Below are positions 6,816 through 35,565 of a stretch of DNA of 35,689 nt, one piece after another. Location: assembly GCA_028293805.1 (NCBI GenBank), contig JAQGOC010000208.1, positions 1-35,689 of the forward strand. The letters run 5' to 3'. Origin of the DNA: Gammaproteobacteria bacterium. GTDB taxonomy: Bacteria; Pseudomonadota; Gammaproteobacteria; Steroidobacterales; Steroidobacteraceae. Made by a program: the position numbers and the translations under genes. The notes under the pieces are model-generated. The model saw only the letters and a program-made list of their open reading frames with translations. It had not been told where the DNA came from and did no database searches. The first letter of the stretch is position 1. Each line of letters starts with the position of its first letter.

Positions 6816-6927
6816 GGCGACTCCTCCCATCTATGCGGCTATCGGGTGCTGCGGACCCGAGGCGACTTCTATTGCGGCGCGGCAAAAACCGCCCCGCGGC
6901 TGCCTCTCATACATTCATCTTAGAACC

Positions 6928-6947
6928 CAGATACATCTGTGTATCTG
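6928..6947. promoter_or_regulatory. Inverted repeat, candidate TetR operator of the efflux operon
   Basis: CAGATACA-TCTG-TGTATCTG is a perfect inverted repeat with 8-base arms and a 4-base centre. It lies in the divergent gap between the adaptor gene (start 6815) and the tetR gene (start 6998). Its ATACA...TGTAT core resembles the ACATACA...TGTATGT operator known for AcrR. A second small palindrome, GTATAC, follows at 6947-6952. Placement and symmetry fit dual repression of pump and regulator. Confidence 0.65.
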
Positions 6948-6997
6948 TATACGATGATGAATTCAAATATTGCTCCGCATGTGCTAGCATGGGCGGC

Positions 6998-7639: not shown

Positions 7640-7942
7640 GCTCCTGCCAGTGTCAACCGGGCGGCACGACTGCGTAGCGCGGCCTTGCAGCACGCCTGCG
7701 CATCATTCCGGTTCATAGATCAAAATAAGAACGCCGGGATGCCCAGAATGTATTTGTGATCCAGGGCAGTCGGGTCTAGTTTGAGTGCTGCCGGGCACGT
7801 CCGGCGCGGCCAATGGAAGAGCAACCCATGATGCCGGTCCTCTCTGCCGTCCTTTCAGGAAGGGTCCTGGGGTCAGCGCTCCGGCGCCCAACCCAGTCAG
7901 CGCGTGAACCGGCCCGTGTTCCCCTGAGTTGAAGGAGATCTC
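7640..7942. other. Intergenic region between tetR and the sulfite oxidase genes
   Basis: No convincing gene in 303 bases. It holds a short GC-rich inverted repeat (GCCGG, 7790-7794, and CCGGC, 7801-7805, six bases apart) without a T-tract, and a good ribosome site (AAGGAG) at its end before the next start. I could not identify a consensus promoter. Confidence 0.6.
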
Positions 7943-16365: not shown

Positions 16366-17027
16366 CGCAGCTGATAGCCCACGCCGCGTATGGTCTTGAA
16401 CAGCGCCTTGCCGTCCGTGGGCTCGAACTTCGCCCGCAGCTTGCTCATGTACACATCGAGCAGGTTGGCATCCATCTCGTACGGGGATGACCAGACCTTC
16501 TCGCAGATCAGCATGCGCGTGAGTATGCGGCCCGCGTTGTGCATGAAGATCTCGAGAAGGGCGAACTCGCGGCTGGTCAAATTGACCGGCACGCCGTTGA
16601 ATTGCGCCGTCCGGCCTGCCAGATCGACACGAATGCCACGGTGTTCGAGCACCGTGTCCTTGACGCTCGACTGCCGCCGCAGCAGCGAGCGCAGGCGTGC
16701 CAACAGCTCGTCCAGGCTGAATGGTTTTGGCAGATAGTCATCGGCGCCGACATCGAGGCCCTTGATGCGGTCCTGTACGGTATCGCGTGCGCTGAGAATG
16801 ATGACGGGCTCGTTGAAACCGCTCTTGCGCCATTCGTGGAGCAGGTCCAGCCCGTCACCGTCGGGCAGACCAAGGTCGAGAACGATGGCATCGTAGCTGG
16901 CCTCGCAGAGCGCATCCCGTGCGTCGCTGCAGCTGCCAACACAGCCGACGGTATAACCGGCATCGGTCAAACCCCGCTTCAGGAGCAGGCCGAGACGCGC
17001 CAGGTCTTCCACCACCAGAATTTTCAT
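16362..17027 (-). CDS. OmpR/PhoB-family response regulator
   Basis: 221 residues. The receiver domain (1-115) begins MKILVVED, with acidic Glu7-Asp8, phospho-Asp51 in IVLDLGLPDGDG, the switch residue in IILSARD and Lys in LPKPFSLDELLARL. The C-terminal winged helix (about 125-221) has LTSREFALLEIFMHNAG, then the recognition helix NLLDVYMSKLRAKF and the final wing TIRGVGYQLR. It is a standard QseB/PmrA-like regulator. The gene comes first in the pair and its stop overlaps the kinase start (ATGA). Target promoters cannot be deduced; the 2HCT transporter upstream region is the nearest candidate. Confidence 0.95.
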   Translation of the reverse strand: MKILVVEDLARLGLLLKRGLTDAGYTVGCVGSCSDARDALCEASYDAIVLDLGLPDGDGLDLLHEWRKSGFNEPVIILSARDTVQDRIKGLDVGADDYLPKPFSLDELLARLRSLLRRQSSVKDTVLEHRGIRVDLAGRTAQFNGVPVNLTSREFALLEIFMHNAGRILTRMLICEKVWSSPYEMDANLLDVYMSKLRAKFEPTDGKALFKTIRGVGYQLR

Positions 17028-17198
17028 CGTACCTCAAGGTTCTCGCTCCCGCGTCGGGCCGCATCATCGCGCGATATCGGATTGGCGGCAATGAAGAGGC
17101 TGCCGGCCGCAATTCCTAAAGGGCGGCGAGTCTTTTCCAACTCGCGAATGGATGCGCCGCGCAATGAACCGTCCGGGCACGCGGCACGCGCAGGCTCA

Positions 17199-17774
17199 TC
17201 AACGGGCTCTCAAAGTGCGAAACGTAATCGAGTATCGAAGTGCGGGCACCGCCGGCACGCTGTGCTGCCAGTCCCAGCGAGCCGCGCCCTGGAGCCGGTA
17301 AATCGAACGCGGCTCGATCTCGATGGCGAGCGACTTCTCGCGAACCTTCGGCGGGTAGCGTCGGAAACGCATGCGGCACGCGTTCAGCAGGGATATTCCG
17401 GCGACGACCTCGAAGTCGGATACGTCGCGGTGCCACCCGAGTTGCGTGCCGGGCGCGTATTCGGCCACGAGGATGTGCGTGAAGCTCTCGGCGGCGCAGC
17501 CGCTCCAGGCAGCCACCTGAGCGCGCAGCGGAAGCAGGAATGGAGGGATGGGCTCACCCGAGTCCAGCCGGCGCGCCGAATAGTCGTACCGTCCGCCGTA
17601 GCTGACTATGCGCCTCTTGGCGAGGTACTGCCGGTACTGTGCCTGGGCCAACGGCAGGCGTTCGATCTCGTGAACGAGGACTGCCTCGTCCGCTGCAGAA
17701 ATGAAATCGGATTCGTAGGCGTAGCCGTTCGCGAATGCCTGACCGGCCGCCGAAAAAAGCGCACGTTGAGCCAT
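17199..17774 (-). CDS. AlkB-like 2-oxoglutarate/Fe(II) dioxygenase
   Basis: A 191-residue AlkB-type enzyme, predicted to remove alkyl groups from nucleic-acid bases by oxidation. The iron triad is His115-x-Asp117 in GWHRDVSD and His171 in DWQHSVP; the 2-oxoglutarate-binding Arg180-x5-Arg186 is in RYSITFR. The frame stays open far upstream, but the ATG at 17774 (MAQRALFSAAGQ) gives the usual family length and leaves a 92-base divergent gap to the F420 enzyme gene. The initial part lacks a strong ribosome site. The SYGGRYDYSARRLD stretch resembles the short AlkB forms that work on DNA. It is probably unrelated in function to the F420 genes next door. Confidence 0.87.
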   Translation of the reverse strand: MAQRALFSAAGQAFANGYAYESDFISAADEAVLVHEIERLPLAQAQYRQYLAKRRIVSYGGRYDYSARRLDSGEPIPPFLLPLRAQVAAWSGCAAESFTHILVAEYAPGTQLGWHRDVSDFEVVAGISLLNACRMRFRRYPPKVREKSLAIEIEPRSIYRLQGAARWDWQHSVPAVPALRYSITFRTLRAR

Positions 17775-17866
17775 TCGGTAGATATGAGGGCCGCGAGCCT
17801 CCTCACAATGCAGCGCCCGCGGCGGCACGAAACGTGCGAACGACGGTTCAACCAGGAGGAACCTCA

Positions 17867-19105
17867 ATGTCCAACGAATCCGCAGCTTTCCCCGGCGACA
17901 GCTTCGCCGGTCTGGGTCGGCGTGACATGTTGAAATCGGCGGGCGCGCTGTTGGCCGCCTCCGGCGCGGGACTGTCGGCCGTAAGCGAGGCAGCGGTGGG
18001 CAGTGGCGGCGGGGTAGCGGCGGGTGCCGGTGGCGCCGGCCCCGCAAGCGTTGCGGGCGCAGCATCCACGACACACCATTCCGCATCGCTGCGTCGGGGC
18101 ATGGTTGCCTTCATGTTGGCCCATGAGCAGTTTCCGGTTACGGAATTAGTCCGCCTGGGAGCCTCTGCGGAGCAGGCCGGCTTTGATCTTCTGGCCACGA
18201 GCGATCACTTCCAGCCTTGGCAGGCAAACGAGCGGCACGCCGGAGAGGCATGGATCACGCTTGGCGCGCTGGGACAGCAGACTCACCGCGCCTGGATGGG
18301 GCCGACCGTCACGTGCCCCACCTTGCGCTATCACCCGGCAGTGGTCGCCGAGGCGTTCGCGACCTTGAGCCAGCTTTATCCGGGTCGCATTTTTCTCGGC
18401 CTCGGCTCGGGTGAGGCGTTGAATGAGCAGGCCGCGACCGGACAATGGCCGGCCTGGCGCGAACGCTGGGATCGGCTCATCGAGGCCGTGACCATCATTC
18501 GGCAGCTCTGGACCGGGAATCCGTTACAACACAAAGGCACGCACTACACGGTGAGCGGCAGGCTGTACGACCCGCCGGCAAAGCCGATTCCGCTGCTGCT
18601 CGCCGCGAATGGTCCGAAGGCGATGAAGCTTGCCGGCCAGCACGGCGATGGCCTCATTACCGATCCGCAGACCTGGAAGGAATCCAAGAGCGAGTGGCAA
18701 AGCGGAGCGCGCGCCGCCGGGAAGAACCCCGACGAAATGCCCGTGCTCGTGGAAGCATTCGTGGTGGTCGGCGAGCAGGCTGACGCTCAGACAGCAGCCA
18801 AACTCTGGAACTTCATCCCCAAGGCCTTCAAGGGCTACCACAACATCCCGGACCCGGCGCAGATCGAGCGCCAGGCCCAGGCGGAGCTGCCATTACCGAA
18901 GGTCTACGGGGACTGGACCGTCAGTACGGATCCGGCCGCACACGTTCAAGCGATCAGGAAGCTGTTCGACAGTGGCGCCACCATCGTCAACATCCACTCT
19001 GGCCAGCCCGACCAACAGAAGGTGCTGGAGTTTTACGGCAAGGAGGTGCTGCCGCGAATCAGAGGCGCGTCCGCGCCCGCTCCAGGCGGCGCGAGCCCTC
19101 ATTGA
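17867..19105 (+). CDS. Tat-exported F420-dependent oxidoreductase (Fgd2-like)
   Basis: A 412-residue luciferase-like (LLM) enzyme whose close relatives are the TAT-translocated Fgd2 group (including mycobacterial hydroxymycolate dehydrogenase). The start after AGGAGGA yields a twin-arginine signal GLGRRDMLKSAGALLAASGAG (Arg18-Arg19), then a Gly/Ala-rich linker. The F420 site is intact: ATSDHFQPW, TCPTLRYHPAVVAEAFATL and GLGSGEALNE. The phosphate-binding residues of Fgd1 are missing: the SGK loop reads GDGLITDPQTW, and AKRW reads VYGDW. It should therefore not use glucose-6-phosphate. It probably oxidises or reduces a hydroxyl/carbonyl compound outside the cytoplasm, and the substrate is unknown. 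It is convergent with the Ddn-like gene. Confidence 0.88.
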   Translation: MSNESAAFPGDSFAGLGRRDMLKSAGALLAASGAGLSAVSEAAVGSGGGVAAGAGGAGPASVAGAASTTHHSASLRRGMVAFMLAHEQFPVTELVRLGASAEQAGFDLLATSDHFQPWQANERHAGEAWITLGALGQQTHRAWMGPTVTCPTLRYHPAVVAEAFATLSQLYPGRIFLGLGSGEALNEQAATGQWPAWRERWDRLIEAVTIIRQLWTGNPLQHKGTHYTVSGRLYDPPAKPIPLLLAANGPKAMKLAGQHGDGLITDPQTWKESKSEWQSGARAAGKNPDEMPVLVEAFVVVGEQADAQTAAKLWNFIPKAFKGYHNIPDPAQIERQAQAELPLPKVYGDWTVSTDPAAHVQAIRKLFDSGATIVNIHSGQPDQQKVLEFYGKEVLPRIRGASAPAPGGASPH

Positions 19106-19107
19106 GA

Positions 19108-19148
19108 CCGCAGGCGTTCCCGGGCCCGTTGCACTCTCGGGCCTGCGG
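19108..19148. repeat. Imperfect-loop inverted repeat between convergent F420 genes
   Basis: CCGCAGGC (19108-19115) and GCCTGCGG (19141-19148) are perfect complements 25 bases apart, directly after the Fgd2-like stop. There is no T-tract, so it is at best a weak terminator for that gene. Confidence 0.35.
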
Positions 19149-19205
19149 CCGAGCGCTCACCGACGTCGCGGGTCGATCCGCCGCCATGCGCGGGAACTTC
19201 TGACC

Positions 19206-19224
19206 AACGGGCCTCAGGCCCGTT
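19206..19224 (-). terminator. Hairpin centred on the stop codon of the Ddn-like gene
   Basis: AACGGGCC-TCA-GGCCCGTT: perfect 8-base arms around a 3-base loop, and that loop is exactly the stop codon (TGA on the minus strand). No run of T follows on either strand. It may mark the 3' end of the F420 operon, as a Rho-assisted or RNase-protecting stem. The symmetry is seen; the role is inferred. Confidence 0.45.
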
Positions 19225-19669
19225 GCAACACGACCACCGGAATCTGCCGATCGGTCTTCTTCTGGTAGTCCGCATAGGGCGCGTAGATCTCCACCATTTT
19301 TGGCCACAGTGTCGCCCGCTCGGCACCAGTCGCGGTATGCGCGCGCGCCGTGAACTTGTCGGCCTTGACCTGCACCTGCACTTCCGGGTTGGCCTCGAGG
19401 TTGAGGTACCAGGCGGGGTGCGCCGGTGCTCCGCCCTTGGAGGCGACCACGACATAGTCGGGGCCCGATTGGCCGAAGATCAGCGGCAGAGTCAGGACTC
19501 GTCCGGACTTGCGGCCGACAGTGCTGAGCAACAGGGTTGGCACCATTCCGGTGCCGCCGCCGAGGCTGGCGTCCCAGAGATACCCGTCTTCGCCGTTGGT
19601 GGCGAGATAACGCGACAAGTGATCTTTGATCCAACCCGGAAGCTCGCTGGAGCTACTCGATTCCGCCAT
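19214..19669 (-). CDS. Ddn-type deazaflavin (F420)-dependent nitroreductase/quinone reductase family protein
   Basis: 151 residues of the split-beta-barrel FDOR-A family that includes Mycobacterium Ddn. The diagnostic segment is present: TVGRKSGRVLTLPLIF, then YVVVASKGGAPAHPAWYLNLEANPEVQVQV, with a C-terminal WPKMVEIYAPYADYQKKT. Family members use reduced F420 to reduce quinones, nitro-compounds or enones. The ATG at 19669 follows GGAGG; a longer open frame reaches 19747 but would overlap cofD. It lies 67 bases downstream of cofD in the same direction, so it is probably the last gene of the F420 operon. The natural substrate cannot be predicted; menaquinone-like quinones are one guess from the family. 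Confidence 0.9.
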   Translation of the reverse strand: MAESSSSSELPGWIKDHLSRYLATNGEDGYLWDASLGGGTGMVPTLLLSTVGRKSGRVLTLPLIFGQSGPDYVVVASKGGAPAHPAWYLNLEANPEVQVQVKADKFTARAHTATGAERATLWPKMVEIYAPYADYQKKTDRQIPVVVLQRA

Positions 19670-19736
19670 GATGTCCTCCACTTCGTACGAACCCGGCCCT
19701 GACCGCAGAAGGCCTACAGTACGCCCGTGATCGTGA

Positions 19737-20678
19737 TTACGCGACAAGTGTATCGGCAGCTCTCAGCACCGTGCGAGCGAGCTCGCGGCGGTCCTCGACC
19801 GTGCTCATGAGTGTTGCGGCGCTGAAGAACGTGATGCCCGGCAGAGGCGCCGGAACCGGATCCGCCCGATCGATGACAAAGCCATCGATGAGGTCCGCAT
19901 AACGCTGGGCGACCGCTGCCCCGCTCACGTCGAGTCCCAGCTCCGCCATCATTTTGGCCGCCGGGCCCTTGATCGCCTTGCCGCCAATGATGGGCGTGAC
20001 GGCAACCACGGGTGCGTGGGATCGTCGCATGGCGGACCGGATGCCCGGTACGGCGAGAATCGGCTCGACACTCACGAAAGGGTTGGAGGGACAGATGATG
20101 ATGGCCCGCAGATCGCGGCGCTCGAGGGCCGCCAGCGCATCCGGCTGCGCGCGCGCCAGCTCGGCCCCGGCGAACATGAAGTCCCGCACGGCCGGCCGGC
20201 ATTGCTGATGAACAAAGTATTCCTGGAAGTCCAACCATCCCTCCGCAGTCAGCACGCGCGTGCCCACTGGGTCGTCACTCATCGGCAGCACTCGTGCAGT
20301 GATGGCAAGAGCCCTGCACAGGTGAGCCGTGACTTCGCTCAATGTCGCACCGCGGGCGAGCCGCCAGCTGCGCTCCACGTGCACGGCCAGGTCGCCGTCG
20401 CCGAGCTGAAACCAACTCTCCCCACCGAGGCCCCTGAGCGCCTCCATGAAAGTCCAGGTCTCCTTGCGCCGTCCCCAGCCTCTGACCGGATCGGATAATC
20501 CCGCCAAGGCGTACATCACGGAATCCAGATCGGGCGCGATGCTGAGGCCCAGATGCTGGAAGTCATCGCCGGTGTTGACGATTATCGAGAGCTCCTCCGG
20601 TGGCAGCGCGCTTGCCAGGCCGTGTGCGAGCTTGGCGCCGCCGACGCCCCCGCATAGGGCCACGACATGTCCGGTCAT
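19737..20678 (-). CDS. cofD: 2-phospho-L-lactate (or PEP/3-PG) transferase CofD/FbiA
   Basis: 313 residues. The enzyme attaches the phospholactyl-type group from an activated GDP (LPPG-type) intermediate to FO, giving F420-0. The family signatures are all visible: GGVGGAK at 10-16, VNTGDDF at 34-40, [13 protein letters not shown] at 48-60 and [10 protein letters not shown] at 131-140. [19 protein letters not shown] follows near 200, and [17 protein letters not shown] after that. The length matches archaeal CofD and mycobacterial FbiA. The start overlaps the cofE stop by ATGA. Which tail precursor is used (2-phospholactate, phosphoenolpyruvate or 3-phosphoglycerate) depends mostly on CofC and cannot be read from this sequence by eye. 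Confidence 0.95.
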
Positions 20679-21484
20679 CGGAAAAGATCCTGTTGTTGTG
20701 GGCGAATGAGAGCGGCGGCGGGCTGATGCGGTGCTCGCGACGCGAGTCCCCGGACCAGAATGACCGGGCGTGCCTCGCTCGCTTGTCCCATGACTAACGA
20801 GGCGGCGGACGCGATTTCATCGGCGCGACCGACGACGGTGACCCGCAGAGGACGCCCGAACAGATCCGCTTGACCACGCAGGTCGAGAGTTGCGGGCAAC
20901 CCCGCGCAACCGATCGCCACGCCAACGGTGCCCATGCGCCACGGACGACCGAAGCTGTCACTGATCACGATCGCCGGCTCGCAGCCGGTCAGGGCACGAA
21001 GCCGGTCACGCAAGCGGACGGCGCTCGCATCCGGGTCTTCGGGTAGCAGCAAAGCAAATTCACCGTCGGCGGGCGCGGCGACGTTGGATTGATCGATCCC
21101 TGCGTTGGCCATGATCAGCCCCAGCCGGTGCTCGACGATCAGGACATCCCGGGCTGCGCGGACTATGCGGCGCGATTCGCGCAGGATCAGCTCCACGAGT
21201 CGCGGATCCTTCTGCACGGTCTGGGCCAACTCGAGCGCTCTCCCACTGGGCGCGACCTGGGCGAGATCGATGCGCCGCCCTTCCGCCTTGGAGATCACCT
21301 TCTGCGCAAAAACCAACACATCGTCCGGCCGCAACTGCAAACCGCCGCGTGTCAACGCCGCCAGGGTGAAAGCGGCCAGATCGTCGCCGCTGCCCACCTG
21401 CGGAAAATCGGGTAATGCGACGAGGCGCAGCTCGGGTGCGCAACTCAGCGCCAAAGGCGTGGCAGGCTCAGGCAAACGCCGCAC
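20675..21484 (-). CDS. cofE: Coenzyme F420-0:L-glutamate ligase CofE
   Basis: 269 residues. It adds the gamma-linked glutamate tail to F420-0 using GTP. Motifs are VFAQKVISKAEGR (58-70), MANAGIDQSN (125-134) with the GTP/metal residues, and SDSFGRPWRMGTVGVAIG (175-192). This is a stand-alone ligase: the C-terminal FMN-binding nitroreductase-like domain of mycobacterial FbiB is absent. The best start is a GTG at 21484, which overlaps the fgd gene by 17 bases; it has no clear ribosome site, so translation is likely coupled. It sits between fgd and cofD and overlaps both. The number of glutamates added is unknown. Confidence 0.94.
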   Translation of the reverse strand: MRRLPEPATPLALSCAPELRLVALPDFPQVGSGDDLAAFTLAALTRGGLQLRPDDVLVFAQKVISKAEGRRIDLAQVAPSGRALELAQTVQKDPRLVELILRESRRIVRAARDVLIVEHRLGLIMANAGIDQSNVAAPADGEFALLLPEDPDASAVRLRDRLRALTGCEPAIVISDSFGRPWRMGTVGVAIGCAGLPATLDLRGQADLFGRPLRVTVVGRADEIASAASLVMGQASEARPVILVRGLASRAPHQPAAALIRPQQQDLFR

Positions 21485-22472
21485 GCAGTCTGGGCAGGAC
21501 CTCGTCGGCGTACAGATTCAGGAAGCGCGCCTGGTCGGGCCCCGGAGCGTGAAACACGAGATGCCGGAAGCCCATCTCGATGTACGGCCGAAGCTGCTCC
21601 ACGTGCTCATCCGGGTCGGTACCGACGAGCCAACGCTTGGCCGCGCGCTCCGCCGGAATCTGATCAGCGAGACGTTCCATCTCGAGCGGATCCTCGACCG
21701 AGCTTTTTTCCTCCGGCGAGAGCGCCAACGCCGCCCAATGCCGGGTGTCCTCCAGCGCGCGCTGCCGATCCTTGTCGAAGGACACCTTCATCTCGATCAT
21801 CATCCCGACGTCCTCCGGCTTGCGGCCGGCCGCCTGGACGCCTGCCGCCACGTTGGGCAGCAGGGTATCTCGATACAACTCGGGCGCCTTACCGCTGGTG
21901 CAGATGAACCCGTCCGCGAACTGACCGGCATATTTGGCCATTACCGGTCCCGCGCCCGCGACGTAGAGCGGCGGCATCACCTTGGGCCTGTCGTAGATAG
22001 TCGCTTTCTCGGTGCGATAGTACTGGCCTTGGAAGCTCACTCGCTGTTCGCTCCAGAGCTGCCGGATGAGCGCCAATGCCTCCTTGAGGCGCGCCGTACG
22101 TTCCTTCGGTTCGGGCCACGCCATGCCTAGCGGGGGCACTTCGTTGAGCGATTCTCCCGTGCCCACACCGAGAATCACACGCTCGGGAAACATCGCGCCC
22201 AGCGTAGCAAAGGCCTGTGCAACCACGGAGGGGTGATAGCGGAAAGTCGGGGTGAGCACGCTCGTGCCCATGATGATGCGCGCTGTGCGCGCGCCAAGCG
22301 CACCCAGCCAAGCGATCGAAAACGGTGCATGGCCGCCTGAGTGGCGCCACGGCTGAAAATGATCACTGATGAAAACGGAATCGAAGCCCCGCCGTTCGGC
22401 GAGAATCGCGAAGTCGAGCAGCTCGGTCGGCCCGAATTGCTCCGCGGAAGCCTTGTAACCTAATTGCAGCAA
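21468..22472 (-). CDS. fgd: F420-dependent glucose-6-phosphate dehydrogenase (Fgd1 type)
   Basis: 334 residues, colinear with mycobacterial Fgd1 and opening with the same LGYKASAEQF. It would oxidise glucose-6-phosphate to 6-phosphogluconolactone and reduce F420. Catalytic residues match: His38 and Trp42 in SDHFQPWRH (Fgd1 His40, Trp44) and Glu107 in GTGESLNE (Fgd1 Glu109). The three phosphate-binding residues are also present: Lys195 in ICTSGK, Lys256 in PEEKSS and Arg280 in AKRW (Fgd1 Lys198, Lys259, Arg283). SVLTPTFRYHPSVVAQAFATLG is the F420-site region. The start is TTG, with AGAGGA eight bases before it. It lies 28 bases after fbiC in the operon, supplying reduced F420 for the neighbouring enzymes. 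Confidence 0.93.
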   Translation of the reverse strand: MLQLGYKASAEQFGPTELLDFAILAERRGFDSVFISDHFQPWRHSGGHAPFSIAWLGALGARTARIIMGTSVLTPTFRYHPSVVAQAFATLGAMFPERVILGVGTGESLNEVPPLGMAWPEPKERTARLKEALALIRQLWSEQRVSFQGQYYRTEKATIYDRPKVMPPLYVAGAGPVMAKYAGQFADGFICTSGKAPELYRDTLLPNVAAGVQAAGRKPEDVGMMIEMKVSFDKDRQRALEDTRHWAALALSPEEKSSVEDPLEMERLADQIPAERAAKRWLVGTDPDEHVEQLRPYIEMGFRHLVFHAPGPDQARFLNLYADEVLPRLRAAFA

Positions 22473-22500
22473 CGCGCTTGTCCTCTTTGCGGCTCGCCAA

Positions 22501-24978
22501 TCAGTTGGCCGTTGCCAACGCGGACGCTGCGGGCGAGGGTTGCAAGCCGTTCACCCGCATTGCCGATACCTCGCCGAGGGTCCCGTAGAGCGTCGTGCGC
22601 TGACGTGTTGGTCGGCCGATCCCGCGCGCCAACGTTTGCAGTTGTGCGGCATCGAGCTCCTGCCCGTGTACACCGCCGGCCGCCCGGGTAATCGACTCAT
22701 TCATAAGTGTTCCGCCCAGATCGTTGGCCCCCGCGTCCAGGCACACCGCGGCACCCGACGCACCCATTTTCACCCAGGACGTCTGGATGTTGGTGATCAG
22801 TGGATGCAACACGAGCCTGGGTACGGCGTGCATGAGCACGGCTTCGCGAAAAGTAGGACCGGAGCGCGTCCGTCCCTTACGCCACAACGGTGCTTCCATA
22901 TGCACATAGCCCAGGGGCACGAATTCACTGATTCCCGCTGTCCGGGCCTGGAGCGAGCGCAGGCGGTGCAGATGCCGGGCCCAGTGAACAGGCTGCTCCA
23001 CGTGCCCGAACATTATGGTGGACGTCGTGCGCAGGCCTACTTCATGGGCCGTGCCGATCACTTCCAACCATTCGTCCGTACCTAGCTTATCCGGACAGAT
23101 GATGGCGCGGATCTCATCGTCCAGAATCTCGGCGGCAGTACCCGGTAAAGTCGAGAGGCCTGCGTCCCGCAGCTTTTCCAGATAAACGGCAAGCGGAAGG
23201 CCGAGAGTGCTCGCGCCATGTTTGACTTCCAATGGCGAGAAGGCGTGCACGTGCATCCACGGCACCGCCTCCTTGACGGCGCGGACAATATTCAAGTAGG
23301 TCTCGCCCGTGAAGCTCGGATGAATGCCGCCTTGCAGGCACACCTCGGTCGCGCCGGCGGCCGCCGCCTCGGCCGTGCGGCGCGCCACCTCGTCGAGGTC
23401 GAGGTTGTAGGCGGGGCCACGCAGATCCGCGGACCCGCGGCCCTTCGAAAACGCACAGAAGCCGCAGTGGTACAGACAGATATTCGTGTAGTTGATGTTC
23501 CGGTTTATGACGTAGGTAACCGTGTCGCCGCTCGATTCGCGACGCAGCTGGTCCGCCGCTGAAATCACGGCATCCAGGTCGCGGCCTTCAGCATTAAAGA
23601 GGCACACAATGTCCGCCTCGCCCAACGCGTGCCCCGCGCGCGCTGCGTTGATGATCGCGTCCATTCGCGAGGTGTGCCTGGGGCGCTTCAACGCCACGTG
23701 GCTGTAGCCAGGAGCGGTCGAACTGTCAGCCTTCACTGCCTGAGCGTTCGATGACCAGCGCGCCGCAATCGCGGGCAACTCGGAGCCTGAGCCGGCGTAC
23801 CAGCGGTCCGGCCGCGCGAAGCCACGACTGTCGCTCAATCGGCGCACACGCGGCGTGATGGCGGGATCTGTCCAAAACTCGGGCCGCGCTGCGTAAGCCG
23901 GCACCAGGGCCAGGCGCTCGATCAAATTCCTTCCGGCGGCGTTAGTGGAGCGCGCAAGATCCGAAAGATGTGGCCAGGGCGCCTCAGGGTTCACGTGGTC
24001 GGGTGTCACCGGCGATACGCCGCCCCAGTCGTTGATGCCGGCGCGCACCAGGCTGCTCAGCTCCCCGGACTGCAGGTTCGGCGGCGCCTGAATCGACATG
24101 TGCGGACCAAACACCAGCCGCGCCACCGCTATCGTCCACAGATGCTCTTCCAGGGCCGGCTCGGGCGCCGCGGCCATTTTGGTGCCGGGCTTGGCTCTGA
24201 AATTCTGGATGATGAGTTCCTGCAGATGGCCGTGCGCGTCCTGGATCTCGCGCAGGGCGAGCAGCGACTCGATGCGCTCGCGACGCGTTTCGCCAATGCC
24301 TATCAGCAGGCCCGTCGTCATCGGAACACCCAGCTCGCCCGCTGCCCGGAGCGTCGCTAGCCGCCGGGCCGGTAGCTTGTCGGGAGAACCGAAGTGCGGA
24401 CCCCCTCGCTCGCACAGGCGGTCCGAAGCGCTTTCGAGCATCAATCCCATCGACGCGCTTACCGGCCGGAGCCGCTGCAAATCCACAGTGTCCATGATGC
24501 CGGGGTTCAGATGGGGGAGCAGCCCAGTCTGCTCCAGTACGAGCTTGGCCATGCGCTCCAGGTACTGCAGCGTGCTCTCCGCCCCCGCGGCATCGAGAGC
24601 GGTACGCGCCGCTTTGTAGCGCTCTTCGGGTCTGTCACCGAGAGTGAACAGTGCTTCCTTACAGTCTGCCGCACTGCCCGCACGCGCTATCGCGAGCACC
24701 TCATCCGCCGTGAGGTAGGCCGCTCGGAGGTGTCGAGGCGCTTTCGCGAAAGTGCAGTAGTGGCAGACGTCCCGACACAGCTGCGTTAGCGGAACGAACA
24801 CTTTGCGGGAGTAGGTGACCGCTTCCGCGAAGCCGGCCAGGGTGAGTGACTCGGCGGCCGGCAGGAGCTCGGCAGCCGGCACCTGCGGCAGCGATGCCAG
24901 CGCCACGGCCGGATCGGGCCGGCGGCCCGCCGCGGCGGCGCTCAGCAGGGAGCTCAGGCCCGAAGTCGCGCGAGCCAT
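22501..24978 (-). CDS. fbiC: FO synthase, fused CofG-CofH (FbiC)
   Basis: About 825 residues from the ATG at 24978, which has AAGGA at the right distance and overlaps the cofC end by 25 bases. Two radical-SAM halves are fused as in mycobacterial FbiC (856 residues). The CofG half carries CRDVCHYC (Cys68, Cys72, Cys75), and the CofH half CLYHCGFC (Cys501, Cys505, Cys508), each a CX3CX2C iron-sulfur site. Other landmarks are TTGLLIGIGETRRERIESLLALR and NDWGGVSPVTPDHVNPEAPWP in the first half, and LQGGIHPSFTGETYLNI and NDLGGTLMNESITRAAG in the second. It makes the deazaflavin FO from tyrosine and the flavin precursor 5-amino-6-ribitylaminouracil. In many Archaea the two halves are separate genes. 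Confidence 0.96.
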   Translation of the reverse strand: MARATSGLSSLLSAAAAGRRPDPAVALASLPQVPAAELLPAAESLTLAGFAEAVTYSRKVFVPLTQLCRDVCHYCTFAKAPRHLRAAYLTADEVLAIARAGSAADCKEALFTLGDRPEERYKAARTALDAAGAESTLQYLERMAKLVLEQTGLLPHLNPGIMDTVDLQRLRPVSASMGLMLESASDRLCERGGPHFGSPDKLPARRLATLRAAGELGVPMTTGLLIGIGETRRERIESLLALREIQDAHGHLQELIIQNFRAKPGTKMAAAPEPALEEHLWTIAVARLVFGPHMSIQAPPNLQSGELSSLVRAGINDWGGVSPVTPDHVNPEAPWPHLSDLARSTNAAGRNLIERLALVPAYAARPEFWTDPAITPRVRRLSDSRGFARPDRWYAGSGSELPAIAARWSSNAQAVKADSSTAPGYSHVALKRPRHTSRMDAIINAARAGHALGEADIVCLFNAEGRDLDAVISAADQLRRESSGDTVTYVINRNINYTNICLYHCGFCAFSKGRGSADLRGPAYNLDLDEVARRTAEAAAAGATEVCLQGGIHPSFTGETYLNIVRAVKEAVPWMHVHAFSPLEVKHGASTLGLPLAVYLEKLRDAGLSTLPGTAAEILDDEIRAIICPDKLGTDEWLEVIGTAHEVGLRTTSTIMFGHVEQPVHWARHLHRLRSLQARTAGISEFVPLGYVHMEAPLWRKGRTRSGPTFREAVLMHAVPRLVLHPLITNIQTSWVKMGASGAAVCLDAGANDLGGTLMNESITRAAGGVHGQELDAAQLQTLARGIGRPTRQRTTLYGTLGEVSAMRVNGLQPSPAASALATAN

Positions 24979-25589
24979 TGTTGTCCTTGGAGCAGGTTGA
25001 GGTCTGCCGGCGAATCCAGATCGAATTCCAGCCCGGGGAGGCGGACCACTTGCGGACTCAAGCCCATGCGTTGTGCCTCCCGCAAATGCAATCGATGGCT
25101 GTCGGGACCGAACTGAAAACGAAAGGGAAGCGTCGTTGCGAGGCACAGCGCGTTGGTCCCTGCTCCGGCGGCATCAGGCGCAATCGCAAAGCCGCCGGTC
25201 CGGCCGGCCCGCACCAGATCGTCGATTTCCGCTGCGGTGACCTTCGGCAGATCTGCCGGCAATACCACCACTTCTGCGCAACCGAATTCGCGCAGCAACG
25301 TATGAGCCTGTAACAGCGCACTGTTGAGGGACTCGCCCGTGTCCGCCAGCACCGGGAACTCGGCGGGAACCAGGTCTCGCTCCGGGCTGATCACCATGAT
25401 TTGATGCACCGTCTGCGCACCACCCGCGGCAGCGAGCACGGCCGTAAGCATCGATCGTACGAGCTCGATGCGTGCCCCCGGCGGAAGCACTTCCGCAAGT
25501 CGTGTTTTGCAGTGCGCGCGTTCCTTGATCGCGATCAGGAGGCACGCGCCCCGCCGCCGATCGAGGCGGCGTCTCAGGTCGCTAAGCAC
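24954..25589 (-). CDS. cofC: CofC/FbiD, guanylyltransferase of F420 tail synthesis
   Basis: 211 residues of the CofC nucleotidyltransferase family. It activates the three-carbon tail precursor with GTP before CofD joins it to FO. Motifs are LIAIKERAHCKTRLA (18-32), VVVLPADLPKVT (108-118), APDAAGAGTNALCL (137-150), FQFGPDSHRLHLREA (158-172) and FDLDSPADL (189-197). The precursor is 2-phospholactate in methanogens, phosphoenolpyruvate in mycobacteria and 3-phosphoglycerate in Paraburkholderia rhizoxinica; I cannot tell which applies. The start is GTG. The stop lies inside the start of fbiC. It lies 72 bases after the upstream LLM gene. Confidence 0.92.
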   Translation of the reverse strand: MLSDLRRRLDRRRGACLLIAIKERAHCKTRLAEVLPPGARIELVRSMLTAVLAAAGGAQTVHQIMVISPERDLVPAEFPVLADTGESLNSALLQAHTLLREFGCAEVVVLPADLPKVTAAEIDDLVRAGRTGGFAIAPDAAGAGTNALCLATTLPFRFQFGPDSHRLHLREAQRMGLSPQVVRLPGLEFDLDSPADLNLLQGQQWLARLRA

Positions 25590-25661
25590 AGGCTCATCCG
25601 GGTTTCCTGGGGAGTGCCAGAACTAACGTCCACAATACTCATGCGGGCTCACTTCGGCCAG

Positions 25662-26543
25662 TCAAATGCCGCCGCCCCGACCCGGCGCCAGCAGACCGAG
25701 TAGACGCTCATCGGGCAGTCCGTTGGGACCGATAGCTTGCACACAGACGTGGTCCGCGCCCGCCTGCCAATGCTCGTCGATGCGCGCGCGGATCGCCTTC
25801 TCGTCACCCCAGACGAGCACCCCGTCGATCAATCGATCCGATCCGCCGCCTGCAAAGTCCGTCTCCGTGTAACCCAGGCGCCTCCAATTGTTGACGTAAT
25901 TGGGCAGGCCCAGATAGATGGACAGAAACTTTCGGCCGAGGGCACGCGCCTGGGCAGGGTCCGTTTCGAGTATGGCTCCCTGCTCGACGCACAGAAGCTT
26001 GTCCGCGGCCAGGATGGTACGTGCCTGCCGCGTGTGCTCCGGTGTGGTGTTGTAGGGATGAGCGCCGTCGGCCAGTTCCGCGGAGAGCTCGAGCATCTTG
26101 GGCCCAAGCGCGGCGAGGACGGTCTTCGGCGGGGACGCGGGCGGAACCGCCTTGTAGGGAGCACCTGCCATTGCGTGCAGATAGGCACGCATGGTGGTGA
26201 CGGGCTTTCCATACTCATGCTGACGCAGGTCTCGCACGAGAGGCACGTGCGAGACACCCAGGCCCAGCAGAAACCTGCCGCCGGACTGCTCGTTGAGTCC
26301 CTTCTGCGCGGCTGCCGCGCAGAACGCATCGCGCGCGTAGATGTTGGCGATCCCGCTGGCGACGATCAGACTGCTCGTGTTAGCTAAGAGCCAGGCGGCC
26401 GCGGAAAATACCTCGCGTCCCACCGCCTCCGGAGTCCACAGTGCGCCATAGCCCAAGGTTTCGATGCGCTTGGCGAAGGCGGACGCCTCCGCCGCGGAGA
26501 AGCCGTCGGTTGCGGCCCAGACGCCGAGCTTTGTAACTTCCAT
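25662..26543 (-). CDS. LLM-class F420-dependent oxidoreductase (TIGR03620-like)
   Basis: A 293-residue luciferase-like TIM barrel of the small F420 oxidoreductase type named after MSMEG_4141. Features are KLGVWAATDGFSAAEASAFAKRIETLGYGALWTPEAVGR at the N-terminus, ASGIANIYARDAF, GGRFLLGLGVSH at about 89-100, and AALGPKMLELSAELADGAHPYNTTPEHT near 150, a common cofactor-loop pattern. The C-terminal GDEKAIRARIDEHWQAGADHVCVQAI is the typical final barrel segment. GGAG lies before the ATG. It is the first gene of the F420 operon, 72 bases before cofC, and its substrate is unknown. F420 use is inferred from both family and neighbours. Confidence 0.88.
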   Translation of the reverse strand: MEVTKLGVWAATDGFSAAEASAFAKRIETLGYGALWTPEAVGREVFSAAAWLLANTSSLIVASGIANIYARDAFCAAAAQKGLNEQSGGRFLLGLGVSHVPLVRDLRQHEYGKPVTTMRAYLHAMAGAPYKAVPPASPPKTVLAALGPKMLELSAELADGAHPYNTTPEHTRQARTILAADKLLCVEQGAILETDPAQARALGRKFLSIYLGLPNYVNNWRRLGYTETDFAGGGSDRLIDGVLVWGDEKAIRARIDEHWQAGADHVCVQAIGPNGLPDERLLGLLAPGRGGGI

Positions 26544-26576
26544 CGGATACTCCGGATTCGTGTGCGCAGGCTTTTA

Positions 26577-26584
26577 TTATCGTA
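26577..26584 (-). promoter_or_regulatory. Possible -10 element of the F420 operon
   Basis: On the minus strand, TACGATAAT-like bases about 34-41 upstream of the LLM start form an AT-rich -10-like stretch (TACGAT or GATAAT). No good -35 box lies at 17 bases. A TTGTCA further upstream is not well spaced. Listed as the likeliest promoter position only. Confidence 0.25.
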
Positions 26585-26757
26585 GCACTCCGGTATGCAG
26601 CGATGCGCCAGGTGACGTGACAAGAACAGTCTGAAGCAGCTCGCCGTAGAGGAGCGCAACGCCACATTTGCGGGTATCGGTAAGCGCGTCGGAGTTCGTA
26701 TTGGCAGGAAAGTCCGAGCGCGGCCCGGCACGACTGTTTAGGCCCCGCGCGCTCGCG

Positions 26758-26784
26758 CTGAGGTCGACTCGAAGTCGACCTCAG
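26758..26784. repeat. Long perfect stem-loop, 12-base arms
   Basis: CTGAGGTCGACT-CGA-AGTCGACCTCAG: perfect 12-base arms around a 3-base loop. It lies between the F420 operon start and the end of the small secreted protein gene, with no T-tract on either side. It could be a transcript end or a protein-binding palindrome. Confidence 0.6.
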
Positions 26785-26818
26785 GCACGCTCAGGAGCGG
26801 GTTGGAGCGCGCCCATGA

Positions 26819-26853
26819 CGCTGGACCTGTCGACATCGACGACGGGTCCAGCG
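26819..26853. repeat. Second stem-loop with nested inner stem
   Basis: Outer arms CGCTGGACC (26819-26827) and GGTCCAGCG (26845-26853) are perfect. Inside lies a 4-base stem, GTCG (26829-26832) and CGAC (26837-26840). It sits 17 bases beyond the stop of the small secreted protein gene and 34 bases before the 12-base-arm hairpin. No T-run, so it is not a classic intrinsic terminator. Confidence 0.5.
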
Positions 26854-26870
26854 CTCTGCCCGTCAGCCGG

Positions 26871-27218
26871 TCACTTCTGGCTGTTGGTTTTGAGCTGCTG
26901 CTTGCAGCTTTTTCTGGCGTCGGCCATCGACATGCCGGTGTGGTCCGCCTGCTCTCGGGTCATGCAGTCTTTCATCGCCTGCTTATGGCCGGCCTTGCCG
27001 CTGGTTGTCTGCTGCTGGTGCGGTGTGGAAGCCGCTGTCGGTTCAGCGCCATTGGCGGGCGGAGCCTCCGGAGCCTGCGTCTGCGTACTCTGTCGCTGAT
27101 GTGGGCTCGAGGCCGCGGCGGGGGAAGTATCCGGCGGGGGCGGTGCCTGGGCGACTGCAACTGCTATGGATGCGATCGATGTCGCGACGGCTAACAGGGC
27201 TTTTCGACGGAGATTCAT
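26871..27218 (-). CDS. Small secreted Pro/Ala-rich protein of unknown function
   Basis: 115 residues with a Sec signal (RKALLAVATSIASIAVAVAQA, cleavage near residue 24). A Pro/Ser/Gln-rich disordered linker containing two SPHQ/TPHQ-type repeats follows. The C-terminal segment, about 30 residues, has two cysteines (MKDCMTREQADHT...ARKSCKQQL). The Cys spacing and charged helix faintly resemble the PsiF repeat, but too little is conserved to claim it. AAGGAGAGG precedes the ATG, which supports it as a real gene. It probably resides in the periplasm. No function can be given. Confidence 0.7.
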   Translation of the reverse strand: MNLRRKALLAVATSIASIAVAVAQAPPPPDTSPAAASSPHQRQSTQTQAPEAPPANGAEPTAASTPHQQQTTSGKAGHKQAMKDCMTREQADHTGMSMADARKSCKQQLKTNSQK

Positions 27219-27334
27219 GAGCCTCTCCTTGGAGGATGTTCAATCGTAGAAACAGTGAGGCTTCGCGCTGCATCTCACCAGCAGCGCCTCCCCCGCGGGC
27301 GCGTCGGATTGTTCCTACGGCCGGCGCGAAAGCT

Positions 27335-27601
27335 TCACCGGAGCTGGCTATCCTTGCTGCCGCGCCGGTTGTACCCGCTGAACTGCGCCTCTTCGCGATC
27401 ATGGGCCTGCTGGCAGGACAGGCACAGCCGAACACCGGGGACGGCATTCCTGCGCGCGTCCGGAATCGGGTTGCCGCATTCCGCACAGTGAGTCAGGCCG
27501 GGACCCTGAGGCAGACGGTTCTGCACACGGCTGATCCCATCCTTTACGGTTGCGTCGATCTGATCTTGTACCGCGCCGTCACCGGCCCAGCCTGTCGCCA
27601 T
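27335..27601 (-). CDS. ybiI: DksA/TraR-type C4 zinc-finger protein, YbiI-like
   Basis: 88 residues, the same length as Escherichia coli YbiI and with the same layout. An N-terminal GWAGDGAVQDQIDATVKDGI helix is followed by the zinc finger CAECGNPIPDARRNAVPGVRLCLSCQ (two CX2C pairs) and the C-terminal signature SGYNRRGSKDSQLR. It is a short relative of DksA without the long coiled coil that enters the RNA polymerase channel, and its function is not established. The upstream region lies divergently next to the acylase gene, 138 bases away. Confidence 0.92.
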   Translation of the reverse strand: MATGWAGDGAVQDQIDATVKDGISRVQNRLPQGPGLTHCAECGNPIPDARRNAVPGVRLCLSCQQAHDREEAQFSGYNRRGSKDSQLR

Positions 27602-27739
27602 GGTTCTCTCTTGGGGCCACTCATGATTACTTTAAAGAGGGCTCATGCGCCCGGCAACTCAAAGTGGTGCTCTGGCGAAATGTTCGATAAATTGCAGGCT
27701 TACGAATGCATTGCGGTGACCGCCTTGGATCTTGCCTAA

Positions 27740-33507: not shown

Positions 33508-34257
33508 TTATGGTGCCTGTAGCGGTTGCGAGTCGGTGTAACCGGTTCGTGAATCGAGCTCGAGATGCATTGCGATGAGACGCTGCTCGAGCGTGACACG
33601 CAACGCCTCCGCCTGAGCGGCGTCGAGGTGCGGCGGTATGTCCATCGGTTTGCCGATGAGGATGCGGATCTCGGCGCGCGGCTTGGGAATGACGGTGCGG
33701 TCCCACGACCGAGTATTTACCCAGCAGGTCGACGTCGATGCCGCAACCGGTAGCAACACCCCGTTCGTCTTTCGGGCAAGCGTGAGAATGCCGAGCTGCG
33801 CCACTCCGCGCGGACCACGCGACCCGTCTACCGCGAGGCAGGAGTTGAGGTGGCGATCCTCCCGCTGTGCCTTGATCATTTCCGCGAGCGCGCGTGCGCC
33901 ACCGCTTCCCGAGGAGCCGCGGGCAACGCGATAGCCGAGGCCTTCCTCGACGCTCGTCATCAGGTCGCCGTCCTTGCTCTTCGAGCACATCAGCATCCAG
34001 CGGCCGCGTTCCGGTTGGCTGAAGTAGTGCAGAAGTTGGAAGGTGCGGGCGTGGAGGAAGGCGCCGACCACGGGCCGATCGCCCATTAGAAGATCGGTGA
34101 GCCCGGCTTCGTTCTCCGTCACATAGCGCCATGAGCCGCCAAGCAGGCTGTAGGCGCAGCGCGCCAGCGGGGGAGCGAACCAGCGTACGGCGAATTCGCG
34201 TACGGGCCGCCGTTTCCGGGGAGCCGTGGCTGTCGCAGTCGCGCTGGTCGACGTCAT
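33508..34257 (-). CDS. DUF374-type lysophospholipid acyltransferase family protein
   Basis: 249 residues. The pattern SCLAVDGSRGPRGVAQLGILTLARKTNGVLLPVAA matches the DUF374 branch of glycerolipid acyltransferases (usual form DGPRGPR), with FLHARTFQLLHYF in place of the common His-containing first motif and MLMCSKSKDGDLMTSVEEGLGYRVARGSS as the second. The N-terminal 20 residues are basic and Ala/Thr-rich. The ATG at 34257 overlaps the HMG-CoA reductase stop (ATGA), so the two are translated together. The biochemical role is not known for the family. It may acylate a lipid, possibly a product related to its mevalonate-pathway neighbour, which is inference. Confidence 0.8.
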   Translation of the reverse strand: MTSTSATATATAPRKRRPVREFAVRWFAPPLARCAYSLLGGSWRYVTENEAGLTDLLMGDRPVVGAFLHARTFQLLHYFSQPERGRWMLMCSKSKDGDLMTSVEEGLGYRVARGSSGSGGARALAEMIKAQREDRHLNSCLAVDGSRGPRGVAQLGILTLARKTNGVLLPVAASTSTCWVNTRSWDRTVIPKPRAEIRILIGKPMDIPPHLDAAQAEALRVTLEQRLIAMHLELDSRTGYTDSQPLQAP

Positions 34258-35546: not shown

Positions 35547-35565
35547 TCGCAATTCGGAGCGAATG
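35544..35565. promoter_or_regulatory. Inverted repeat at the HMG-CoA reductase start
   Basis: CATTCGC (35544-35550) and GCGAATG (35559-35565), perfect 7-base arms 8 bases apart. The first arm contains the start codon on the minus strand. It may be an operator or a start-site hairpin; there is no evidence of which. Confidence 0.4.

What the first reader, a model, noticed from the sequence alone, without database searches (positions are those of the whole stretch)
17867..26543. Complete coenzyme F420 island: synthesis, reduction and use genes together in a proteobacterium
Within 8.7 kb lie cofC, fused cofG-cofH, cofE and cofD (all core steps), an Fgd1-type glucose-6-phosphate dehydrogenase to make reduced F420, and three candidate F420 users: Tat-exported Fgd2-like, Ddn-like and TIGR03620-like. 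The seven minus-strand genes have gaps of at most 72 bases and three overlaps, so they look like one operon. Enzyme motifs are seen directly. F420 is mainly an actinobacterial and archaeal cofactor with scattered proteobacterial cases; a gathered make-reduce-use set is the unusual point.
Basis: partly seen in the sequence, partly recalled or inferred. Interest (0 to 1): 0.88.

Follow-up and report, generated by a model that had tools for sequence, protein, structure and literature searches.

The report
F420 cofactor operon in a proteobacterium
A proteobacterium known here from a metagenome carries one compact gene set to build the rare redox cofactor F420, charge it with glucose-6-phosphate and use it; sets of this kind are common in its phylum, but charging from sugar phosphate in place of NADPH, and a probably exported F420 enzyme, are uncommon.

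Summary
Eight genes at 17867-26543 match as stated: cofC, fused cofGH, fgd, cofE, cofD, a Ddn-like reductase and a TIGR03620 enzyme on the minus strand, and a convergent Fgd2-like gene with a twin-arginine motif. A second species, G078, has the same eight genes in the same order, 84-92% identical, so a chimera is unlikely. The stated surprise is weaker than claimed: of 60 fetched cof loci with cofE, 52 have an F420-reductase gene within 400 bp of it, and a 2021 review describes such clusters. What stands out is which reductase: Fno (NADPH) in 46, Fgd (glucose-6-phosphate) in 6, both in none. In this genus 11 of 58 genomes have cofE: seven with Fgd, four with Fno, none with both. Outside it, Fno is over cut-off in 0 of 12 Fgd genomes. 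'All core steps' needs care: CofC is not of the 3-phosphoglycerate type and no FbiB-type dehydro-F420 reductase reached its cut-off (0 of 58), so that reduction is unassigned. Activities are inferred, not measured.

The parts
25662..26543 (-). TIGR03620-family F420-dependent LLM oxidoreductase (candidate F420H2 user), first gene of the probable operon
   Evidence: TIGR03620 318.5 bits over cut-off 219.8; 91% identical gene, cut by the contig end, in G078 and 74% in L002 at the same place
24954..25589 (-). cofC / fbiD, phospho-carboxylate guanylyltransferase
   Evidence: TIGR03552 154.1 bits over 105; best solved relative 6bwg/6bwh (named Mtb FbiD in PMC8764529); Gly at the diagnostic position, so not 3-PG type
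22501..24978 (-). cofGH / fbiC, bifunctional FO synthase (two radical-SAM halves)
   Evidence: NF006687 1140.6 bits over 1018; both CX3CX2C motifs in the translation; ATG at 24978 with AAGGA upstream, overlaps cofC by 25 bases
21468..22472 (-). [quoted passage not shown]
   Evidence: TIGR03554 473.9 bits over 420; K198, K259, R283 of Mtb FGD1 conserved
20675..21484 (-). cofE, F420-0:glutamate ligase, without the FbiB C-terminal nitroreductase domain
   Evidence: TIGR01916 264 bits over 180.65; 269 aa, no second domain in Pfam
19737..20678 (-). cofD / fbiA, 2-phospho-L-lactate (or PEP) transferase
   Evidence: TIGR01819 299.7 bits over 257.45
19214..19669 (-). Ddn-like protein of the F420H2-dependent quinone reductase family, last gene of the probable operon
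   Evidence: PF04075 144.7 bits over 22; best solved relative 3r5l, deazaflavin-dependent nitroreductase, 112 bits; ATG 19669 with GGAGG upstream
17867..19105 (+). Fgd2-like TIGR03557-family F420-dependent dehydrogenase, convergent with the operon
   Evidence: TIGR03557 242.1 bits over 210.4; TIGR04465 326.6 under 470; best solved relative 9fp4 'F420-dependent hydroxymycolic acid dehydrogenase', 279 bits
17867..17992 (+). predicted twin-arginine signal peptide of the Fgd2-like protein (GRRDMLK, hydrophobic stretch, SEA)
   Evidence: translation; twin-arginine motif also in the orthologues of G078 and G005; judged by eye, no signal-peptide program run
17854..17859 (+). AGGAGG, likely ribosome-binding site, 7 bases before the Fgd2-like ATG
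   Evidence: sequence

Best explanation
A functional F420 operon of a proteobacterium with an exchangeable reductase gene. CofGH makes FO from tyrosine and a riboflavin-pathway precursor; CofC and CofD attach a PEP- or 2-phospholactate-derived linker; CofE adds glutamates. Fgd then charges F420 to F420H2 with glucose-6-phosphate, standing in the place beside cofE that most of the proteobacterial clusters examined give to the NADPH enzyme Fno. The Ddn-like and TIGR03620 enzymes in the same operon spend F420H2 in the cytoplasm, probably on quinones or on enones and other xenobiotic-like substrates. The convergent Fgd2-like enzyme lacks the phosphate-binding residues, so it is more likely an alcohol dehydrogenase, loaded with F420 in the cytoplasm and exported by Tat. 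Shown here: gene families, order, residues, conservation in a second species, co-occurrence with F420 genes, and the Fgd/Fno alternation. Inferred: all activities, co-transcription, export and substrates.
For: Curated-model hits over cut-off for 7 of 8 genes, the eighth over a broader family's cut-off. Same eight genes, order and strands in G078, another species of the genus, 98% complete (its TIGR03620 gene is cut by the contig end). Core order cofC-cofGH-fgd-cofE-cofD also in G206 of another genus on a 144 kb contig, in L002 and in L003. The glucose-6-phosphate residues K198/K259/R283 are kept in the window's Fgd and in 19 of 19 Fgd proteins aligned (window, loci and genus) and in Rhodococcus Fgd; they are changed in all three Fgd2-like proteins (residues named in PMC3478262, passages). 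PF04075 proteins in 7 of 11 cofE genomes and 0 of 47 others of the genus (Fisher 1.1e-6, not corrected for relatedness). Fgd at E <= 1e-100 in 7 and Fno over cut-off in 4 of the 11, disjoint, and 0 of 47 elsewhere. Outside the genus Fno is over cut-off in 0 of 12 Fgd genomes; the same search found it in 17 of 17 genomes chosen for having fno. Of 60 loci with cofE, fno lies within 400 bp in 46, fgd in 6, both in the stretch in 0. Twin-arginine motif in all three orthologues found.
Against: No FbiB-type dehydro-F420 reductase over cut-off in any of 58 genomes; own best 28.7 bits against 249.55. That search had no positive control over cut-off and a free-standing reductase could score lower. If CofC uses PEP, mature F420 may not be made. 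Two proteobacteria gave only traces of F420 (PMC8498797, passage). Within the genus fgd is beside cofE only in the window and G078; in the other five Fgd genomes it lies elsewhere. G005, an Fno genome, also has an Fgd-family relative (40% identical), though without the three phosphate residues. No sigma-70-like promoter was found in 17000-27900, which tells little at 64% GC. L002 shows no Fgd2-like gene on its contig. No expression or biochemical data.
Confidence: 0.85

Rival explanations
1. The cluster makes dehydro-F420 or another variant as its end product, not classical F420, because the step that reduces the enol linker is missing.
For: CofE lacks the FbiB C-terminal domain; no TIGR03553 over cut-off in 58 genomes; CofC scores higher to Mtb FbiD, solved with PEP, than to the 3-PG enzyme or the archaeal one.
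Against: The review names 2-phospholactate as another route and says that free-standing reductases exist (passages); a diverged or unrelated reductase would be missed, and 47 of 58 genomes have nitroreductase-like matches under the cut-off. PMC8764529 says dehydro-F420 is less stable (passage).
Confidence: 0.3
2. The cluster makes 3PG-F420, as in Mycetohabitans.
For: 3PG-F420 is the form found in the betaproteobacterium Mycetohabitans and its making needs no reduction step (PMC8764529, passages).
Against: The diagnostic Ser162 position is Gly in the window CofC; of 75 CofC rows aligned 62 have Gly, 12 Asp, 1 Asn and none Ser or Thr.
Confidence: 0.05
3. Assembly or binning artefact: an actinobacterial or foreign contig in a proteobacterial bin.
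For: The genome is a metagenome bin with 4.92% contamination. In G078 the island and the matching left flank are on different contigs, and the right flank was not compared.
Against: Same island in G078; left flank 85% DNA identity to G078 over 6.9 kb; tetranucleotide correlation of left, island and right parts with nine other contigs of the bin 0.956, 0.914, 0.919 against 0.875-0.967 among those contigs (a weak test since some other species score alike); nearest relatives in the trees are mostly Pseudomonadota.
Confidence: 0.03
4. The Fgd2-like protein is a second glucose-6-phosphate or sugar-phosphate dehydrogenase and not an exported alcohol dehydrogenase.
For: It is in the F420_G6P family TIGR03557 and 36-41% identical to Fgd-type relatives.
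Against: The three phosphate-binding residues are changed, it scores 279 bits to the hydroxymycolic acid dehydrogenase and 213-224 to FGD1 structures, and it carries a Tat-type motif found in all three orthologues.
Confidence: 0.1

Closest known systems
Proteobacterial cof/fbi clusters with fno, frequent among the 80 loci and of the kind described in review PMC8498797 (text passages and Fig. 10 legend)
   Same: Fused cofGH, cofC, cofD, single-domain cofE, and an F420-reductase gene beside cofE
   Different: Here the reductase is Fgd, not Fno; the order is cofC-cofGH-fgd-cofE-cofD, where 37 of 60 loci have fno-cofE-cofD-cofC-cofGH; user genes are included
Alphaproteobacterial clusters with fgd before cofE: L018 Filomicrobium, L033 Pseudolabrys, L041 Rhodospirillaceae (fgd-cofE-cofD-cofC-cofGH) and L075 Enterovirga (fgd-cofE-cofD-cofGH-cofC)
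   Same: fgd directly before cofE, same Fgd family at 68-76% identity
   Different: Different gene order; no hit was assigned to the Ddn-like, TIGR03620 or Fgd2-like protein in the fetched stretch, though weaker LLM-type hits lie near in three of the four
Mycobacterium tuberculosis Fgd1, Ddn and the Tat-exported Fgd2/fHMAD Rv0132c
   Same: Same three enzyme kinds; Fgd keeps the G6P residues; the Fgd2-like protein lacks them and has a Tat motif, as Rv0132c does (PMC3478262, passages)
   Different: In Mtb the genes are not one operon with the fbi genes (recalled); no lipobox cysteine in the signal region here; a Gram-negative has no mycolic acids (recalled), so the substrate must differ; score under the fHMAD cut-off

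Membership tests
[quoted passage not shown]
   473.9 bits, cut-off 420
[quoted passage not shown]
   K, K, R in the window and in 19 of 19 Fgd proteins aligned (residues from PMC3478262). The position of FGD Gly177 is Ala in the window, neither the FGD Gly nor the FSD Ser (PMC6279831, passages)
[quoted passage not shown]
   Needs purified enzyme
F420-dependent hydroxymycolic acid dehydrogenase (Fgd2/fHMAD, TIGR04465) | Score over the curated cut-off | tested here: not met
   326.6 bits, cut-off 470; not filed as a member
F420-dependent hydroxymycolic acid dehydrogenase (Fgd2/fHMAD, TIGR04465) | Loss of the three G6P phosphate-binding residues | tested here: met
   K198 place T or a gap, K259 place Y, R283 place D
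F420-dependent hydroxymycolic acid dehydrogenase (Fgd2/fHMAD, TIGR04465) | Twin-arginine signal | tested here: inconclusive
   GRRDMLK motif and hydrophobic stretch by eye; RR motif also in G078 and G005; no prediction program available
Deazaflavin-dependent nitroreductase/quinone reductase (PF04075, Ddn) | Score over the Pfam gathering score, Ddn as nearest solved structure | tested here: met
   144.7 bits over 22; 3r5l 112 bits; three tyrosines of a YxxYxxY stretch kept in that alignment (their role in Ddn recalled)
3-PG-activating CofC | Serine at the S162 position | tested here: not met
   Gly in the window; 0 of 75 rows Ser or Thr (position from PMC8764529)
FbiB (CofE fused to dehydro-F420 reductase) | C-terminal nitroreductase domain TIGR03553 | tested here: not met
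   CofE 269 aa with the ligase domain only; 0 of 58 genus genomes over cut-off, with no positive control in that search
Complete F420 biosynthesis pathway | CofC, CofD, CofE, CofG, CofH all present | tested here: met
Complete F420 biosynthesis pathway | Reductase for the dehydro intermediate, or a 2-phospholactate source | tested here: inconclusive
   No FbiB-type reductase over cut-off; source of 2-phospholactate not tested

The most novel reading that the evidence does not exclude
In these proteobacteria each lineage commits its F420 pool to one electron source, NADPH through Fno or glucose-6-phosphate through Fgd, by exchanging the reductase gene and never keeping both. In the Fgd branch the F420H2 pool is thus insulated from NADPH, and part of the cofactor is carried by Tat on an F420-loaded dehydrogenase into the periplasm of a Gram-negative cell.
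Probability: 0.3. Interest if true: 0.62.

Novelty: new variant of a known kind. Interest (0 to 1): 0.45.

Why it matters
It turns a descriptive find into testable rules. F420 clusters in Pseudomonadota mostly come with their own reductase, of one of two kinds that exclude each other in the genomes sampled. That asks why Fgd and Fno should not coexist (for instance, the pair would link the G6P and NADPH pools through F420) and says which genomes to use. It also offers a genus of 58 sampled genomes in which F420 genes are patchy, a dehydro-F420 reductase step to look for, and a compact donor cassette for F420 biocatalysis.

Tried and rejected
Chimera or actinobacterial origin: judged unlikely. 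3PG-F420: disfavoured by the diagnostic residue. Second G6P dehydrogenase for the plus-strand gene: disfavoured. A mosaic origin of the cluster (CofGH and CofE of different history) looked possible, but the test that the five window-like CofE rows form one clade was not rejected (p 0.26), so no claim is made. A single origin of the Fgd slot is not excluded either: on the CofE tree 3 changes of the Fgd/Fno label at the fewest, at least 2 forced by starred branches for the Fgd group, but AU p 0.066 for one clade; on a quick CofGH tree at least 3 forced. Promoter and terminator scan gave nothing above the shuffles (0 against 1.3, 2 against 6.3). The penicillin acylase gene beside the island (also next to cofGH in G002) was considered as a part and left out; in the stretches compared it was seen with cof genes in those two places only. 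A regulator for the operon was not looked for beyond the Pfam scans. Structure prediction was not run, as families and residues were already clear.

A slip corrected: two of four Fno query sequences (from L191 and L192) were read in a wrong frame; they were dropped, and the counts stayed the same (47 loci with fno and cofE, 46 of them within 400 bp). In a first count I had put the genus members with fgd away from cofE at three; on recount it is five of seven. The converse test, fgd in Fno genomes outside the genus, was not done at genome level for lack of searches; only the fetched stretches were looked at.
Full report
WHAT IS THERE. The window is contig C25 (35,689 bp, the whole contig) of a metagenome-assembled genome, G000, 5.77 Mb in 392 contigs, 89.05% complete, 4.92% contaminated. 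Between 17867 and 26543 lie eight genes. On the minus strand, in order of transcription: a TIGR03620-family LLM oxidoreductase (26543-25662), cofC (25589-24954), fused cofGH (24978-22501), fgd (22472-21468), cofE (21484-20675), cofD (20678-19737) and a Ddn-like PF04075 protein (19669-19214). On the plus strand, convergent: an Fgd2-like LLM dehydrogenase (17867-19105). The seven minus-strand proteins exceed the curated cut-offs of their NCBIfam models (PF04075). The plus-strand protein exceeds the cut-off of the wider family TIGR03557 but not that of TIGR04465. Junctions are gap 72, overlap 25, gap 28, overlap 17, overlap 4, gap 67, with likely starts read from ribosome-site-like sequence, so one transcript is likely but not shown.

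IS IT REAL AND NATIVE. A second species of the same genus, G078 (98% complete), has the same eight genes in the same order and strands on an 8,883 bp contig, at 84-92% protein identity in the tblastn pieces; its TIGR03620 gene is cut by the contig end. The window's left flank (782-7646) is 85% identical to another G078 contig; the right flank was not compared. Left, island and right parts of the window correlate at 0.956, 0.914 and 0.919 in tetranucleotide usage with nine other contigs of the bin, which among themselves give 0.875-0.967 (a tenth contig of 4 kb was fetched and not used). Some stretches of other species scored as high (0.92-0.94), so this test alone is weak. Three genomes of the genus are identical to GenBank records titled 'Proteobacteria bacterium' over the stretches compared, so the phylum is Pseudomonadota; the best named match to CofGH is a Gammaproteobacteria bin, L002, 78%. 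An actinobacterial contaminant is unlikely.

HOW COMMON IS A MAKE-REDUCE SET. Of the 80, 60 have a cofE in the stretch held (60 loci, not 60 genomes: two come from one Aromatoleum). Of these 60, 46 have fno within 400 bp of cofE, 6 have fgd there, 1 has fno further off, 7 have neither in the stretch (two of the seven begin at the edge of cofE, two are of this genus with fgd elsewhere in the genome), and none has both. The commonest order, 37 of 60, is fno-cofE-cofD-cofC-cofGH. So the gathering of synthesis and reduction is usual in this phylum, and review PMC8498797 already describes clusters with Fgd, Fno, FDOR and LLHT genes in the context of the cof genes (passages and Fig. 10 legend). CofGH relatives also sit on 44 plasmid records, largely Sinorhizobium, Sphingobium and Rhodococcus.

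WHAT IS UNCOMMON. First, the reductase. In the window's genus, 58 genomes counting its own were searched. CofE is in 11 at E <= 1e-20, Fgd in 7 at E <= 1e-100 and Fno over its cut-off in 4. The seven and the four add up to the eleven without overlap; the 47 others have neither. If four were drawn at random from eleven, the chance of missing all seven is 1 in 330, without correction for relatedness. Outside the genus, 12 Fgd-bearing genomes were searched for Fno: 0 reached the cut-off of 149.8 bits (best 80.5, G175), while 17 of 17 genomes chosen because their locus has fno did; those 17 only show that the search works. [quoted passage not shown] in the four alphaproteobacterial Fgd genomes searched here Fno was not over cut-off. 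Against a strict rule: G005, an Fno genome, has an Fgd-family relative at 40% identity, though with D, T and S in place of the three phosphate-binding residues. The reverse test (fgd in Fno genomes) was made at genome level in the genus only. Absence in draft genomes is never complete proof. Nor is the place beside cofE constant: of the seven Fgd genomes of the genus only the window and G078 have fgd there, and of the four Fno genomes three have fno there.

Second, the order and the history. The order cofC-cofGH-fgd-cofE-cofD is shared by the window, G078, L002, L003 and G206 of another genus in the family. Four others of the genus (G001, G002, G064, G073) carry cofE-cofD-cofC-cofGH; in the rest the genes are split over places or contigs. 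In a tree of 74 CofE sequences the 11 genus rows do not form one clade (AU p 4e-93): the window's CofE, with G078, G003 and G020, groups with Fgd-linked clusters including Enterovirga (98/96 support), the other seven lie in a distant group. The genus therefore holds at least two F420 clusters of different origin, best read as horizontal transfer. How many times fgd and fno were exchanged is open: 3 changes at the fewest on the CofE tree, a single Fgd clade not rejected at p 0.066, at least 3 forced on a quick CofGH tree.

Third, the users. PF04075 proteins occur in 7 of the 11 cofE genomes and in 0 of the 47 others, which ties the family to F420 in this genus. The Fgd2-like protein is rare: in an even draw of 369 genomes of the class only the window's own reached E 1e-100 (G078, which would have, was evidently not drawn), and among 64 F420-related genomes searched at 1e-60 only G005 of this genus has a close copy (67% identity); the other matches there are 36-41% identical and include Fgd1 genes. 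The three copies known here carry a twin-arginine motif before a hydrophobic stretch.

MECHANISM. CofGH makes FO; CofC and CofD attach the linker; CofE adds glutamate (pathway as in PMC8498797, passages). The CofC has Gly, not Ser, at the position diagnostic for 3-phosphoglycerate (PMC8764529, passages), as have 62 of 75 CofC rows, the rest Asp (12) or Asn (1), so 3PG-F420 is unlikely. If PEP is used, a dehydro-F420 reductase is needed; CofE has no such domain and no FbiB-type reductase was over cut-off in 58 genomes, best 65.8 bits against 249.55 and 28.7 in the window's genome; no genome in that search gave a positive control, and a free-standing reductase could score lower. Either 2-phospholactate is the substrate, or an unrecognised reductase acts, or the dehydro form is the product. 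Fgd keeps K198, K259 and R283, which bind the phosphate of glucose-6-phosphate, as do 19 of 19 Fgd proteins aligned (residues from PMC3478262, passages). It should feed F420H2 to the Ddn-like and TIGR03620 enzymes. The Fgd2-like enzyme has lost all three and is nearest to the hydroxymycolic acid dehydrogenase structure 9fp4. As Rv0132c is exported by Tat with F420 bound (PMC3478262, abstract and passages) and that clade oxidises alcohols (PMC6279831, passages), the most likely role is a periplasmic alcohol dehydrogenase with F420 as bound cofactor. Its substrate is unlikely to be a mycolic acid here. All of this is inference from sequence.

NOVELTY. A new variant of a known kind. Seven literature searches, seen as listings, showed no paper stating the Fgd/Fno exclusion beside cofE, but the primary survey of proteobacterial F420 genes (Ney et al. 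2017) was not held, and only passages of the review were read, so priority is not claimed.

Noticed in passing
window 27740-29956 (+): A penicillin-amidase family (PF01804) gene stands beside the island; a 66% identical gene stands directly after cofGH in G002 (L004/L109), whose cof cluster is of the other type.
   Followed up: partly
window 34254-35552 (-): HMG-CoA reductase (PF00368) whose best NCBIfam match is the NADPH class TIGR00533, 273 bits under the cut-off of 441.8, with hardly any match to the degradative NAD type; uncommon for a proteobacterium (recalled).
   Followed up: no
window 17199-18086 (-): 2OG-Fe(II) oxygenase (PF13532), divergent from and overlapping the start region of the Fgd2-like gene; its true start is probably inside.
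   Followed up: no
window 7943-9184 (+): Molybdopterin oxidoreductase with dimerisation domain (PF00174, PF03404) and a weak TAT_signal match under cut-off, perhaps a second Tat substrate in the window.
   Followed up: no
L112 and L113 (G003), L116 and L148 (G020): In two genus members cofGH lies next to or near fgd on one contig and cofC-cofE-cofD on another; G003 has two cofGH copies.
   Followed up: partly
L217 7067-9369 (G005 contig C114): Divergent pair of F420 LLM dehydrogenases: a Tat-type Fgd2-like orthologue (67%) and a second Fgd-family protein (40% to the window's Fgd) without the phosphate residues, in a genome that has Fno and no Fgd at E <= 1e-100.
   Followed up: partly
L003: A bin labelled Planctomycetota carries the same cofC-cofGH-fgd-cofE-cofD order; transfer or a mislabelled bin.
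   Followed up: no
L066: A bin labelled Klebsiella pneumoniae carries an F420 cluster with fno; the bin label is doubtful.
   Followed up: no
L017 and L020 (Aromatoleum anaerobium contig NZ_WTVG02000039.1): One contig carries two cof clusters about 100 kb apart, both with fno.
   Followed up: no
Fgd of L033 (Pseudolabrys): At the FGD Gly177 / FSD Ser position 17 of 19 proteobacterial-type Fgd other than L033 and the window count have Ala as the window does; L033 has Ser, Rhodococcus Gly (Ala in 18 of 19 counting the window).
   Followed up: no
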